DNA from: a virus
IMG/VR virus record: IMGVR_UViG_3300030106_002269
Location: 1-30,403 of that record
Reading direction: 5' to 3' (one strand)
Length of the DNA stretch: 30,403 nt
Shown: in pieces, positions 18,891-22,531 of the stretch
Layout: each line of letters starts with the position of its first letter
How positions within the stretch are numbered: position 1 is the stretch's first letter
Translations under genes and position numbers: made by a program
Notes under the pieces: model-generated
The model's input: only the letters and a program-made list of their open reading frames with translations
Told to the model about the DNA's origin: nothing
Databases searched by the model: none

Positions 18891-19313
18891 TTAAAGGGAT
18901 AATTCTTCTCGTAAGTTTGCCAGTAAGCCTTTCAGCTTTTCTTTCGGCATCACCCTTTTGTCATCTGGCTTATCACTCAACAACAAGTGTTTGGGCCGAT
19001 TCTCAAAGCACATCTCTTTGAATTTGCCGAGTGTCAATTTTCCGACAAACCCTGTAGCCCTCTTGCTTCCTTCCATTAGAGCCTGATTGGACAAACCTCT
19101 GCATGAGTGCCGCCAAAATTCTGACGTTTGGCTACTAACACCATCATGCACTAGCTTTGATAGTTCCAGGGAAGCCCATACCTTTACCCATAGGGTCTTG
19201 GGTATCTCTCCAGTCGGTGCGTTAGTGTTCCAAGTATTGTCGGTACTCGTCAGCTCTTGAGACATCCCGTGCTTTGCTTGTATTTGTGTTACTAACTGCT
19301 TGCTCGATTTCAT
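18891..19313 (-). CDS. Replication protein P-like (probable helicase loader)
   Basis: The start is placed at ATG 19313, eight bases after GAGAGG, giving 140 residues. The ATG five codons earlier has no such site. The segment KTLWVKVWASLELSKLVHDG ... HSCRGLSNQALMEGSKRATG, FVGKLTLGKFKEMCFENRPK resembles lambda P-type proteins: a conserved W-x-x-x-(W/L) helix, then x-G-L, then LT-x-x-(K/E)-F-x-x-(L/M)-C. It overlaps the O-like gene by 92 bases, like the O-P pair of lambdoid phages. Similarity is only at motif level. A 55-base AT-rich gap follows it, with no clear terminator. Confidence 0.42.
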   Translation of the reverse strand: MKSSKQLVTQIQAKHGMSQELTSTDNTWNTNAPTGEIPKTLWVKVWASLELSKLVHDGVSSQTSEFWRHSCRGLSNQALMEGSKRATGFVGKLTLGKFKEMCFENRPKHLLLSDKPDDKRVMPKEKLKGLLANLREELSL

Positions 19314-19569
19314 CGTCAAACCTCTCATCTCTTATGTATCTGTTTAAATGTGGGAAGGGGGCAAAGAATTGTCCCGCCTGTTGAAGCCCTCGTTTAGCCT
19401 CTGCTTGGCTCTGATAGGCTCTTATAATTTCTTCGGCATCTTCTGTGTTTTCTATCATCTTGATCCACTCCGCGTAGGCATCCTTCTTGCTACCCTTCGC
19501 CCCCAGTTTAGCGTCAGCCATAGACCAGAATGTCTCAAAGTCTTGGCTGTATAGTGTTTTTCTTTTCAA
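19222..19569 (-). CDS. Replication protein O-like (initiator-type) small protein
   Basis: This 115-residue protein starts with TTG, supported by a textbook AAAGGAGAATACA spacing. It has the pattern YSQDFETFWSMADAKLGAKG-S-KKDAYAEW, then a helix, then FAPFPHLNRYIRDERFDDEI. The F-x-x-F-W ... K-x-x-A-x-x-x-(W/Y) and F-P-h-x-x-x-(Y/W)-(L/I)-R-x-x-R-(F/W) motifs are typical of phage replication proteins in the lambda O or DnaT-like region. It is the first gene after the guide-RNA array. The terminal array repeat runs straight into its ribosome binding site, so the two are almost certainly on one transcript. Confidence 0.45.
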   Translation of the reverse strand: MKRKTLYSQDFETFWSMADAKLGAKGSKKDAYAEWIKMIENTEDAEEIIRAYQSQAEAKRGLQQAGQFFAPFPHLNRYIRDERFDDEIEQAVSNTNTSKARDVSRADEYRQYLEH

Positions 19570-19580
19570 TGTATTCTCCT

Positions 19581-19913
19581 TTAATCGTTAGACCAAGTTG
19601 GTTGTCTTGCCTTAAATGACTCGCTTTCGCTTGTTGGTTGTCTGCTATTTTTTGACTCGTTCCTTACTAATGGTTGTCTCCGCAAGAATGACTCGTTTTC
19701 TAAGTTTGGTTGTCTAAATTCCAATGACTCGCTAGGGTAGCTTGGTTGTCTTATTTCGTATGACTCGTTACAATCCGATGGTTGTCTTCTTTCAGTTGAC
19801 TCATTACAATTGAATGGTTGTCTCCCGCCCTCTGACTCGTTTCTTGGTCATGGTTGTCTCCACACGAATGACTCGTTTTTGTATTTTGGTTGTCTAGTGA
19901 GCAATGACCCAAT
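19581..19913 (-). repeat. TIGR array: alternating 9-base repeats with 9-base spacers
   Basis: Read on the minus strand, the unit is AACGAGTCA-N9-AGACAACCA-N9, period exactly 36. There are nine identical copies of AGACAACCA. There are ten phase-keeping copies of the second repeat: five AACGAGTCA, two AGCGAGTCA, one AATGAGTCA, and degenerate ends ATTGGGTCA (19905) and AACGATTAA (19581). The 18 spacers are all 9 bases and different, e.g. TTGCTCACT, AAATACAAA, TTCGTGTGG, TGACCAAGA, GAGGGCGGG. Repeat cores GTC and GAC can pair. The dual-repeat, dual-spacer 36-base unit next to a Nop-domain protein is the reported plan of TIGR arrays, processed to 36-nt guide RNAs. The array begins three bases after the tas stop and ends at the ribosome binding site of the next gene. 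Transcription strand is inferred from the operon. Confidence 0.92.
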
Positions 19914-19916
19914 TAC

Positions 19917-20783
19917 TTAGGCAGCTTTGCCATGCACCTTGCCTAGCTTTGCCTCGCTATAGGTTGGAGCAACAGGCAAGCCCTCTATCCTGCGCCACTC
20001 GTTATAGAGGTCTATCAGGAATATCTTAATCATGTAACGCACCGCCATGTTGTGTCTGTGTCCTTTAGACTTCTCTTTATGAGCGTCCATGTTCTCAATA
20101 CGGTGCTTGTAATCGTCATAAACTTGGCGGTACTTACACTTATCAGCAGGTTGTTTAATAAAACTACTACCCAAAACACCTACTAATTTGGTCTTCAAAA
20201 ACGGATTAAAAGTAATACCCTTCTTGGTTTTAATCTCTCCATCAGCATCCGTATATTGTGAATCCTCTAGATGTTCCTTCCTTCTGCTACGCCCCTGACC
20301 ATCACTTGCTACATCTAGCCCTGCATACTTGTGTAGACTAGAAGGATACTCGGCTTGAGTAATATCAATCTCACTAATAATTACCCCTGCCATCGCAGGG
20401 CCGACACCCCTAATCCCTGCAAGAAATTCATTATAAATCGGGTAGTCCTTGAGGATGTTCCCCAGTCTACGGAAGTGAGAGTTCTCTTGCTGCTCTAGCT
20501 CCAGGTAGTTATCCACCAAGCATAGCTCTGTGTAGTCGCTAATAACCTCGTCACCTTCAAATGTGGCTTGTCTTGGGAATGTGGCTACACCCTCTGTTAA
20601 CAGCTTGTGAGACCTTCTGAGGTTCTCTAGGAGCTTCTGCCCATCCTTATCAATGGTATCCTCCTTCTCACTAGGAGCTTGCCCTAGCTTGGCTTTGAAG
20701 TTGCCTACCAGTCGGTTGCCAGTTTGGATACGATTCTTTTGAATGTCATATGCTCCACGCACGATTGTTTTTAAATTGCTCAT
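19917..20783 (-). CDS. tasA: TasA-like Nop-domain guide-RNA-binding protein
   Basis: This 288-residue protein resembles the C-terminal part of IS110 transposases (Transposase_20) and the Nop domain of box C/D RNPs. A helical N-terminal region (1-115) contains a Tyr/Glu-rich coiled segment (84-106). A helix-hairpin-helix-like FLAGIRGVGPAMAGVIISEI (120-139) follows, then LHKYAGLDV (150-158), FNPFLKTKLVGVLGSSFIK (192-210) and HRHNMAVRYMIKIFLIDLY (242-260) plus NEWRR. The DEDD RuvC domain of IS110 and TasR is absent, and no HNH motif is seen, so it belongs with nuclease-less TasA. It would bind guide RNAs from the adjacent array and direct sequence-specific DNA binding rather than cutting. Its ATG overlaps the preceding stop. 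Annotation pipelines would probably call it an IS110 transposase. Confidence 0.85.
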   Translation of the reverse strand: MSNLKTIVRGAYDIQKNRIQTGNRLVGNFKAKLGQAPSEKEDTIDKDGQKLLENLRRSHKLLTEGVATFPRQATFEGDEVISDYTELCLVDNYLELEQQENSHFRRLGNILKDYPIYNEFLAGIRGVGPAMAGVIISEIDITQAEYPSSLHKYAGLDVASDGQGRSRRKEHLEDSQYTDADGEIKTKKGITFNPFLKTKLVGVLGSSFIKQPADKCKYRQVYDDYKHRIENMDAHKEKSKGHRHNMAVRYMIKIFLIDLYNEWRRIEGLPVAPTYSEAKLGKVHGKAA

Positions 20784-21434: not shown

Positions 21435-21458
21435 ACTGTTTATTTATACAGTGGTTTA
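21431..21458 (-). terminator. Weak terminator-like hairpin
   Basis: ACTGT (21435-21439) pairs with ACAGT (21448-21452) around an 8-base loop. Flanking TAAA and TTTA extend it with a two-base bulge. On the minus strand it overlaps the stop of the winged-helix gene and is followed by TTTTACTTATT. It may partly separate the upstream genes from the tas unit. Confidence 0.28.
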
Positions 21459-21848
21459 GATTATGGTTAGTTGAACATCAACATTTTTATTACTTCTTTT
21501 GTCTATTACTTCATCTCCGTAAAGTTCAAGTTTTCCTTCCCATTCTTTAGTTCTCATGACTCTACTTCTGTCCCTCTTATCTCCCAGGTAAAAGATTAAT
21601 CCCTCTGTCTCTAGGTCTTTTGGTCTGCCAGATATCGTTCCTCCAGTAACTCTCTTGCCAGTCATGCGTTCATATTTAACTTCTGCTTCCTTCGGTGTAA
21701 TGCCATTCCTCCCAGCCTCCTTAACCATCTCATAAACTATCTTTTTTAACTGGGCAGTATTTACAATGTGCGCTCCTATTGCTGAGGTCACTGGGTCACT
21801 GCTTCTGTATAATTTAAATGTATCTGTATCATCAAAATCATCTGACAT
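21456..21848 (-). CDS. Winged-helix DNA-binding protein
   Basis: The start is placed at ATG 21848, six bases after AGGAG, giving 130 residues; the frame is open further upstream but without a start signal. The core DPVTSAIGAHIVNTAQLKKI, VYEMVKEAGRNGITPKEAE, TISGRPKDLETEGLIFYLGD and KRDRSRVMRTKEW has the arrangement of a phage winged-helix domain. SDP-x-T-S near the start, a G-(I/L)-T-x-x-E helix, a recognition helix with S-x-R, and a wing before G-x-K-R are typical. Such proteins act in replication initiation or repression. A perfect 12-base palindrome lies just upstream and may be its operator. Confidence 0.6.
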   Translation of the reverse strand: MSDDFDDTDTFKLYRSSDPVTSAIGAHIVNTAQLKKIVYEMVKEAGRNGITPKEAEVKYERMTGKRVTGGTISGRPKDLETEGLIFYLGDKRDRSRVMRTKEWEGKLELYGDEVIDKRSNKNVDVQLTII

Positions 21849-21870
21849 AATTTTCTCCTGTAGTTTCAGT

Positions 21871-21882
21871 AAGTTATAACTT
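21871..21882. promoter_or_regulatory. Perfect 12-base palindrome, candidate operator
   Basis: AAGTTATAACTT is fully self-complementary and lies 23 bases before the winged-helix start codon, in a non-coding leader. Such sites commonly bind dimeric regulators. Autoregulation by the adjacent winged-helix protein is an inference. Confidence 0.35.
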
Positions 21883-22029
21883 CCCCTTTTTCCCCCTTGA
21901 AGATAATCCTTTTCTCCAAGTCTGTTTTCACAGTAATACACACAAAATGTGCATTAGGTACTCAATATTCCCCCGCCTTGCGGCCACTCTCCAGAGCGAA
22001 TCGATCCTGAATACATCAGGCTTCAAGGG

Positions 22030-22069
22030 CCAAGTTGACAAGGGTCAGTCAGAGCTTGGATTTTTTATT
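22030..22069 (+). terminator. Terminator-like hairpin with T-run
   Basis: CCAAG and CTTGG enclose a nested TGAC/GTCA hairpin and are followed by ATTTTTTATT on the plus strand. It would stop plus-strand transcription, although no plus-strand gene lies upstream of it here. Confidence 0.4.
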
Positions 22070-22143
22070 CGTTTAACGTCACATGGACTGGGTTTTGAGT
22101 TGTGATAGTCAAGCCCAATTAACACTATATGTAGTGGTAAGTC

Positions 22144-22174
22144 TTGACCAAGTGGGATAGAGGTAGGATATAAT
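22144..22174 (+). promoter_or_regulatory. Plus-strand promoter for the candidate small RNA
   Basis: TTGACC (22144-22149) and a consensus TATAAT (22169-22174) are separated by 19 bases, two longer than ideal. The predicted start, about 22181, falls at the 5' arm of the AAGTCGG/CCGACTT stem. Confidence 0.4.
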
Positions 22175-22180
22175 TCGGAT

Positions 22181-22318
22181 CAAGTCGGGTTGACTGATCT
22201 TTTCCCACTATTCTATCGGCTCACTTGGCGTTTGGTAGACGCACCGACTTATTCATGTAAGATAATTCTTTCTCTCGGAATTATCAACCCCTGACTAGGC
22301 CCAACGGATGGGCCTTTG
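22181..22318 (+). ncRNA. Candidate structured small RNA, about 135 bases
   Basis: It is bounded by the promoter at 22144-22174 and the terminator at 22297-22315. The RNA would start with AAGTCGG (22182-22188) pairing to CCGACTT (22244-22250). It encloses GCG-TTTGGTAGA-CGC, which looks like the D-arm of tRNA-Leu, and continues with the 8-bp hairpin at 22261-22285 and the terminator stem. It lies antisense to the surrounding early operon and ends before the next minus-strand gene. No T-arm (GGTTCGA type) is present, so it is not an intact tRNA. I do not recognise a known RNA family. Confidence 0.4.
22297..22318 (+). terminator. Rho-independent-type terminator
   Basis: AGGCCCA (22297-22303) pairs perfectly with TGGGCCT (22309-22315) around the loop ACGGA, followed by TTGTCATT. 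The stem is strong and GC-rich in an AT-rich setting; the T-tract is short. It would end a plus-strand RNA just before the convergent gene at 22319. Confidence 0.5.
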
Positions 22319-22531
22319 TCATTCATGGAGTTTGGAAATTTCATCACTTATTAAATCGTGTACGACTTCATCGGTTACAAACTTTCCGTTTTCATCCGAG
22401 GTTATCCACCATATTTCCACAATAGGTTTAAAGAATCCCACATCCGGCTCCGGTCTACCGACTGTATAACTGGCCGTAAACGATAATTGTTTATCTCCTA
22501 AAGTAATGTCGAAACTGTTTGTGCTGTTCAT
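22319..22531 (-). CDS. 70-residue hypothetical protein
   Basis: ATG 22531 is preceded by GGAGG at seven bases. The sequence looks beta-rich (SFDITLGDKQLSFTASYTV, VEIWWITSDENGKFVTDEVV), with a C-terminal helix (HDLISDEISKLHE). No family is recognised. It overlaps the stop of the small membrane protein gene (ATGA-type), so it is part of the early operon. The structured non-coding region lies immediately downstream. Confidence 0.6.
   Translation of the reverse strand: MNSTNSFDITLGDKQLSFTASYTVGRPEPDVGFFKPIVEIWWITSDENGKFVTDEVVHDLISDEISKLHE

What the first reader, a model, noticed from the sequence alone, without database searches (positions are those of the whole stretch)
21942..22318. Structured non-coding element, possibly a phage small RNA
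In this 377-base gap at least seven perfect inverted repeats occur, including a 13-bp two-part long stem (22148-22161 with 22212-22228) and an alternative 7-bp stem that excludes it (22182-22188 with 22244-22250). A plus-strand promoter, a GC-rich terminator, and a second terminator-like hairpin with six T residues point to plus-strand transcription, opposite to all genes for 10 kb. Mutually exclusive stems are typical of switches or of RNAs that refold. It could instead be a replication origin.
Basis: partly seen in the sequence, partly recalled or inferred. Interest (0 to 1): 0.72.

Follow-up and report, generated by a model that had tools for sequence, protein, structure and literature searches.

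The report
New structured RNA in marine phages
The gap holds an unannotated, roughly 400-base folded RNA shared by this virus, four uncultured marine virus genomes and eight cultured Vibrio and Pseudoalteromonas phages; it is read in the same direction as the genes, matches no catalogued RNA family, and probably acts as a control leader at the head of a phage operon.

Summary
The gap is a real structured RNA, but on the minus strand (the gene strand), not the plus strand. It is larger than reported, about 22250 to 21870, and runs into the mis-started ORF 21456-21941 (true start probably ATG 21848). Homologues lie in four uncultured viral genomes and in intergenic gaps of eight cultured Vibrio and Pseudoalteromonas phages. 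A covariance model built only from four of those phages finds the window at 21882-22060 minus (52.9 bits, E 9e-13). In the aligned core, 15 of 30 pairs show changes on both sides. GNRA loops and G-U pairs fix the strand. Rfam has no match.

A truly exclusive pair exists in the 3' core: one strand (21902-21894) can pair with 22029-22021 or with 21920-21914.

Best reading: the cis-acting leader RNA of a phage operon. It is always on the strand of the next gene, and its invariant GGAAAAAGGG motif ends 31-38 nt before an unrelated start codon in 9 of 12 members. A trans-acting GOLLD-like RNA and a replication primer RNA remain possible. No expression data were available. Separately, the window carries a TIGR-TasA guide-RNA system.

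The parts
21870..22256 (-). structured non-coding RNA, whole element as compared (5' end about 22256-22250, 3' end about 21870; ends not mapped)
   Evidence: homologous alignments A1, A3, A8; fold z -3.0; R1 match
22259..22287 (-). promoter-like TTGATA-N17-TATCTT upstream of the RNA
   Evidence: same element in L001 4656-4684. Consensus match only
22297..22315 (+). terminator-like hairpin on the plus strand just outside the RNA 5' end; positional counterparts in L001, L027 and (by eye) L028
22244..22250 (-). P1 5' arm AAGUCGG (pairs with 22188-22182)
   Evidence: kept as GAGUCGG/CCGACUC in L027 and L028
22182..22188 (-). P1 3' arm CCGACUU
22228..22242 (-). P2 hairpin GCGU..ACGC
   Evidence: GCGU/ACGC, GGGU/GCCC, GGGA/UCCC
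22212..22228 (-). P3 5' arm (CCAAGUG + GAUAGA); crosses P1, pseudoknot
   Evidence: kept with changes on both sides: GAUAGA/UCUAUC, GAUGAG/CUUAUC, GACGAGA/UCUCGUC; CCAAGUG/CACUUGG, CUGAG/CUCAG
22148..22161 (-). P3 3' arm (UCUAUC + CACUUGG)
22030..22059 (-). PA stem-loop CCAAG..UGAC-loop-GUCA..CUUGG
   Evidence: 5 of 9 pairs with changes on both sides in A9
22021..22029 (-). strand a, CCCUUGAAG (long-range stem PB with strand c)
   Evidence: 5 of 8 PB pairs with changes on both sides; own-partner pairing 0.98 against 0.87 for swapped partners
22006..22020 (-). H1 hairpin CCUGA-UGUAU-UCAGG
   Evidence: UACCC-UUCG-GGGUA in L027, CACCC-UUUG-GGGUG in L028
21985..21998 (-). H2 hairpin CGCUC-UGGA-GAGUG with G-U to A-U exchange
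21975..21984 (-). H3 hairpin with GNRA loop (GCAA here; GUAA, GAAA elsewhere)
   Evidence: A4, A6, A7; 3 of 4 pairs with changes on both sides
21957..21974 (-). conserved single-stranded motif GGGGGAAUAUUGAGUACC
21914..21920 (-). strand b, CUUGGAG, alternative partner of strand c
   Evidence: b:c pairing of at least 5 bp, or broken by an internal loop, in all types compared
21894..21902 (-). strand c, CUUCAAGGG, pairs with a or b, not both
21883..21896 (-). invariant purine motif GGGGGAAAAAGGGG next to strand c
   Evidence: GGAAAAAGGG kept in all 13 members
21456..21848 (-). downstream gene (predicted winged-helix-like protein, by eye), likely start ATG 21848 with AGGAGA
   Evidence: L001 carries a stop in the longer frame; spacing 35 nt from the purine motif to ATG

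Best explanation
The element is a roughly 400-nt structured RNA of an undescribed family, transcribed on the minus strand and, most likely, the 5' leader of the phage operon that follows. It has two parts: a variable 5' pseudoknot domain and a conserved 3' core. The core has a stem-loop (PA), a multibranch domain closed by long-range helix a:c with a GNRA-capped hairpin, and two conserved single-stranded motifs. Strand c can leave a to pair with nearby b, so the core is bistable; the invariant GGAAAAAGGG follows c and ends 31-38 nt before the next start codon in most members. I infer that the leader controls expression of whatever operon it heads: folding of the 5' domain (followed in the Vibrio and Pseudoalteromonas phages by a stem plus U6-7 tract that looks like an intrinsic terminator) and the a:c/b:c choice set read-through, processing or translation, probably by recruiting a general host factor, since the downstream genes differ. 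Shown by sequence comparison: the family, the strand, the helices, the gene-independent and nearly fixed junction. Inferred: transcription, the switch, the control function.
For: R1, built from four cultured phages without the window, finds the window minus strand at 52.9 bits, E 9e-13, and all other members. In A9, 15 of 30 pairs have changes on both sides, 96.5% of cells are paired against 79.6% in shuffles, and every slid version has 49% or less. The 5' kissing stem differs between phages yet always pairs: only 2 of 40320 partner permutations reach the observed sum. GNRA loops and the UUCG loop are on the gene strand. TATAAT promoters stand just upstream in the eight cultured phages, followed 110-143 nt later by T6-7. 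The RNA is on the strand of the next gene in all members; the 31-38 nt spacing holds in 9 of 12 despite different genes (HTH-like, 124-aa ORF, replication-initiator-like p115, phosphoesterase, HNH nuclease).
Against: No expression data. Fixed spacing may only reflect compact phage genomes; three members have about 120 nt. The U-tract terminator is missing in the window group. A cis-regulator usually tracks one kind of gene, which this does not. A tRNA sits between the 5' domain and the core in Vibrio phage 242E40-1, which suggests separable parts. A9 was fitted to its structure, and there are only about ten independent sequences.
Confidence: 0.45

Rival explanations
1. A trans-acting phage non-coding RNA in the style of GOLLD and ROOL: a folded RNA made from its own promoter, with a variable 5' domain and a conserved 3' region, working as an RNP or RNA assembly during infection and not tied to the next gene.
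For: Downstream genes are unrelated; own promoters; 3' core far better kept than the 5' part; a tRNA in the linker of 242E40-1, as reported for the GOLLD linker (PMC12286853); location in accessory gene clusters of the cultured phages.
Against: No terminator at the 3' end; junction to the next start codon is nearly fixed; about half the size of GOLLD; no Rfam match.
Confidence: 0.3
2. A transcript that primes replication, working like ColE1 RNA II: the G5A5G4 purine tract forms an R-loop, strand c chooses between a and b as RNA II's beta does between alpha and gamma, and a plus-strand antisense RNA ends at the terminator outside the 5' end.
For: Invariant GGAAAAAGGG at the 3' end; bistable a/b/c strands; plus-strand terminators at the 5' border in the window, L001, L027 and L028; the downstream operon of the window group holds a replication-initiator-like protein (PHROG 270, E 2.9e-9).
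Against: GC-skew extremes are not at the RNA in the window, 1.178.O or H105/1; in cultured phages it lies among head and accessory genes, away from the helicase gene; no conserved antisense promoter. The RNA II comparison is from general knowledge.
Confidence: 0.1
3. Plus-strand small RNA.
For: Plus-strand terminator at 22297-22315 with counterparts in relatives.
Against: GNRA and UUCG loops, G-U pairs (A-C on the other strand), promoters and the next-gene junction all lie on the minus strand; a gene-strand covariance model matches the minus strand only.
Confidence: 0.05
4. The conserved stretch is a small coding gene (frame TTG 22026, MKPDVFRIDSLWRVAARRGNIEYLMHILCVLL).
For: Frame open and similar in the window, L003 and L001.
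Against: The frame is broken in L027 (AAG TAC CCT TCG GGG TAG); no family match; a degenerate protein pattern finds only the same contigs; helices are kept through indels.
Confidence: 0.02

Closest known systems
[quoted passage not shown]
   Same: phage-borne, elaborate fold with long-range pairing, conserved 3' region and less conserved 5' region, tRNA sometimes in the linker (PMC12286853)
   Different: about 400 nt instead of often more than 800; no sequence or covariance-model match; mostly next to accessory or replication genes, not tRNA islands; nanocage formation untested
ROOL RNA
   Same: phage and prophage RNA with pseudoknots and unknown function
   Different: no covariance-model match, smaller, other hosts
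Cis-acting phage leader RNAs for antitermination (HK022 put type; general knowledge)
   Same: promoter-proximal, gene-independent position at the head of phage operons
   Different: put RNA is about 70 nt with two simple hairpins; here about 400 nt with pseudoknot and long-range bistable core; antitermination untested
ColE1 RNA II primer (general knowledge)
   Same: long folded RNA with exchangeable helices ahead of a G/A-rich tract; possible antisense transcript
   Different: no evidence of priming; no skew switch

Membership tests
Any Rfam 15 family (GOLLD, ROOL, OLE, riboswitches, leaders, group I/II introns) | covariance-model match at the gathering score | tested here: not met
   no match in the window, nor up to E 10 for 21700-22500, nor in L001, L003, L027, L028; in L047-L051 only a tRNA within the element's linker in L050 and a sub-threshold match elsewhere
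GOLLD RNA | conserved 3' region plus variable 5' region in a phage RNA | tested here: met
   likeness of layout only
GOLLD RNA | sequence and structure of the GOLLD 3' region | tested here: not met
   no Rfam hit
GOLLD RNA | self-assembly into an RNA nanocage | not testable with these tools
   needs cryo-EM or mass photometry
The new phage RNA family itself | match to a model built without the window | tested here: met
   52.9 bits, E 9e-13, minus strand 22060-21882
The new phage RNA family itself | helices kept through changes on both sides | tested here: met
   15 of 30 pairs; controls
Riboswitch or gene-specific leader | constant association with one gene family or pathway | tested here: not met
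   next genes differ
Cis-acting antitermination leader (put-like) | suppression of downstream terminators in cis | not testable with these tools
   needs reporter assays
ColE1 RNA II-like primer | replication starts at the 3' end of the RNA | tested here: inconclusive
   GC-skew extremes lie elsewhere; no direct test possible
TIGR-TasA (neighbouring system, not the finding) | Nop-domain protein without nuclease next to an array of 36-nt units with two spacers | tested here: met
   definition in PMC12045711

The most novel reading that the evidence does not exclude
The founding set of a new class of large phage RNA that acts in trans as an RNA or RNP machine, like GOLLD and ROOL, with a conserved two-state core, carried as a module by unrelated marine phages.
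Probability: 0.28. Interest if true: 0.85.

Novelty: new variant of a known kind. Interest (0 to 1): 0.7.

Why it matters
Large structured RNAs of phages are rare and their functions are open questions. This family is in cultured Vibrio and Pseudoalteromonas phages, so transcription, structure and deletion effects can be tested directly. Its gene-independent position, conserved pseudoknot, bistable core and invariant purine motif suggest a general control device. It also shows that long gaps in annotated phage genomes still hide conserved RNAs that Rfam lacks.

Tried and rejected
Rfam, gathering and E-value modes: no family. Direct DNA search of phages with the window: nothing convincing; only the bridge through L028 reached cultured phages. 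Small ORF 'DSLWRVA..RRGNIEYL': rejected because L027 breaks the frame and no family matches. Replication origin by GC skew: extremes elsewhere. Prophage search: 398 genomes of the phylum gave one hit at E 0.003, expected by chance at that number; 18 genome-contig pattern hits are not members by the model. Plasmids and E. coli genomes: none convincing. L003 1748-1916 minus (E 0.56) is taken as chance but was left in A9, where it slightly lowers the counts. A bridge RNA for the IS110-like protein was considered and dropped: that protein is TasA-like and has its own array. CsrA binding through GGA loops was considered (two loops keep GGA in the window group) but not tested. Per-sequence shuffling of the kissing stem alone was weak; the partner-swap test was decisive.

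Full report
Observation. The window is 30403 of 33467 bases of an uncultured virus record. The gap 21942-22318 holds 8 perfect inverted repeats of at least 7 bp, against 2.3 expected (0 of 300 shuffles). The plus-strand terminator at 22297-22315 is there; the plus-strand promoter is not found by scan. Folding alone already leans to the minus strand in the window (z -3.0 against -1.2).

Homologues. A protein search with the two flanking genes gave L001/L002 and L003; alignment showed about 85% DNA identity over 262 nt of the gap in L001, more than in the neighbouring genes. A DNA pattern on the motif GGGGGAAnAUUGAGUACC gave L027 and L028, with different sequence but the same hairpins. L028 led to five cultured phages, and Pseudoalteromonas phage Pq0 led to H105/1, 1.167.O and 1.029.O. 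In total there are 13 members: the window, L001, L003, L027, L028, Vibrio phages 1.054.O, 1.178.O, 1.276.O, 242E40-1, 1.167.O and 1.029.O, and Pseudoalteromonas phages Pq0 and H105/1. In the cultured phages the element fills large intergenic gaps (about 460-810 nt), on the strand of the next gene; some records place small ORFs in it.

Proof of family and strand. Model R1 was built from Pq0, H105/1, 1.167.O and 1.029.O only. It matches the window at 22060-21882 on the minus strand with 52.9 bits (E 9e-13) and every other member outside its training set at 51 to 65 bits; 18 contigs found by a loose DNA pattern do not match. On the resulting alignment 96.5% of cells form standard pairs, 15 of 30 pairs have changes on both sides, and the covariation score is 0.303 against 0.104 in shuffles and at most 0.050 when partners are slid. 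The alignment was fitted to the structure, so this leans towards it; plain MAFFT alignments show the same exchanges. Hairpin H3 ends in GCAA, GUAA or GAAA on the gene strand in every member that has it, H1 of L027 has a UUCG loop, and several pairs alternate G-U with A-U on the gene strand.

Structure, window coordinates, minus strand. P2 is a hairpin in the first linker. Then PA (22059-22030), the long-range helix a:c (22029-22021 with 21902-21894), hairpins H1, H2, H3 inside it, the motif GGGGGAAUAUUGAGUACC, and further variable hairpins. Strand b (21920-21914) can replace a. The window and L003 have CUUG where others have CAUG in both a and b, and CAAG where others have CAUG in c, so both pairings survive; this is a single evolutionary event. 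After c comes the invariant GGAAAAAGGG.

The Vibrio and Pseudoalteromonas versions have a 5' domain of the same topology: a TATAAT promoter, a short hairpin whose loop pairs with a site inside a long stem, and that stem ends in U6-7, 110-143 nt after the promoter. The loop-site pairing is different in nearly every phage and always complementary: 2 of 40320 partner permutations reach the observed sum (two phages share one loop sequence). In 242E40-1 a tRNA sits just after this U tract.

Function. The next gene differs between members: a predicted winged-helix-like protein in the window, a 124-aa ORF, a replication-initiator-like protein, a phosphoesterase, an HNH nuclease and others. Yet the distance from the purine motif to the start codon is 31-38 nt in 9 of 12 members, about 120 nt in the other three (for Pq0 by the annotated start). 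I take this as a leader at the head of an operon. How it acts, by read-through, processing or translation, is inferred. A trans-acting RNA like GOLLD (layout and tRNA in the linker as reported in PMC12286853) is the main rival. A primer RNA is possible in the window group because the operon holds a replication-initiator-like protein, but skew does not support it. Positional plus-strand terminators at the 5' border keep a short antisense RNA possible.

Novelty. No Rfam 15 family matches, and paper searches found no description; subscription journals are mostly not held, so absence from the literature is not proven. I file it as a new RNA family within the known broad kind of structured phage RNAs.

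Limits. About ten independent sequences; no expression data; ends not mapped; the switch rests on pairing potential; R1's E-values are rough (short calibration).

Noticed in passing
19635-19908 and 19917-20783 (-): A TIGR-TasA system: array of seven 36-nt units AGACAACCA-N9-AACGAGTCA-N9 directly downstream of a 288-aa Nop/Transposase_20 protein; best PDB matches are 9mty and TasH (PMC12045711).
   Followed up: partly
19222-19569 (-) and 18891-19328 (-): Overlapping genes; the first matches only the C-terminal part of phage replication initiation proteins (PHROG 270, E 2.9e-9). The second looks like a lambda P-type loader by eye only.
   Followed up: partly
21456-21941 (-): The ORF is over-extended at its 5' end; likely start is ATG 21848 after AGGAGA.
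   Followed up: yes
L050 1817-1919 (Vibrio phage 242E40-1): A tRNA with an enlarged middle part lies inside the RNA element, between the U tract and the 3' core; Rfam finds it, ARAGORN does not.
   Followed up: partly
L027 2616-2635 (+), L001 4649-4621 (-), window 22297-22315 (+): Terminators directed against the genes' strand at the 5' border of the RNA, although no genes run that way nearby; a hint of antisense transcription.
   Followed up: partly
L048, L051, L050, L047 upstream of the RNA: Inverted repeat CCCACT..AGTGGG overlaps the -35 region and spacer of the TATAAT promoter, a possible operator.
   Followed up: no
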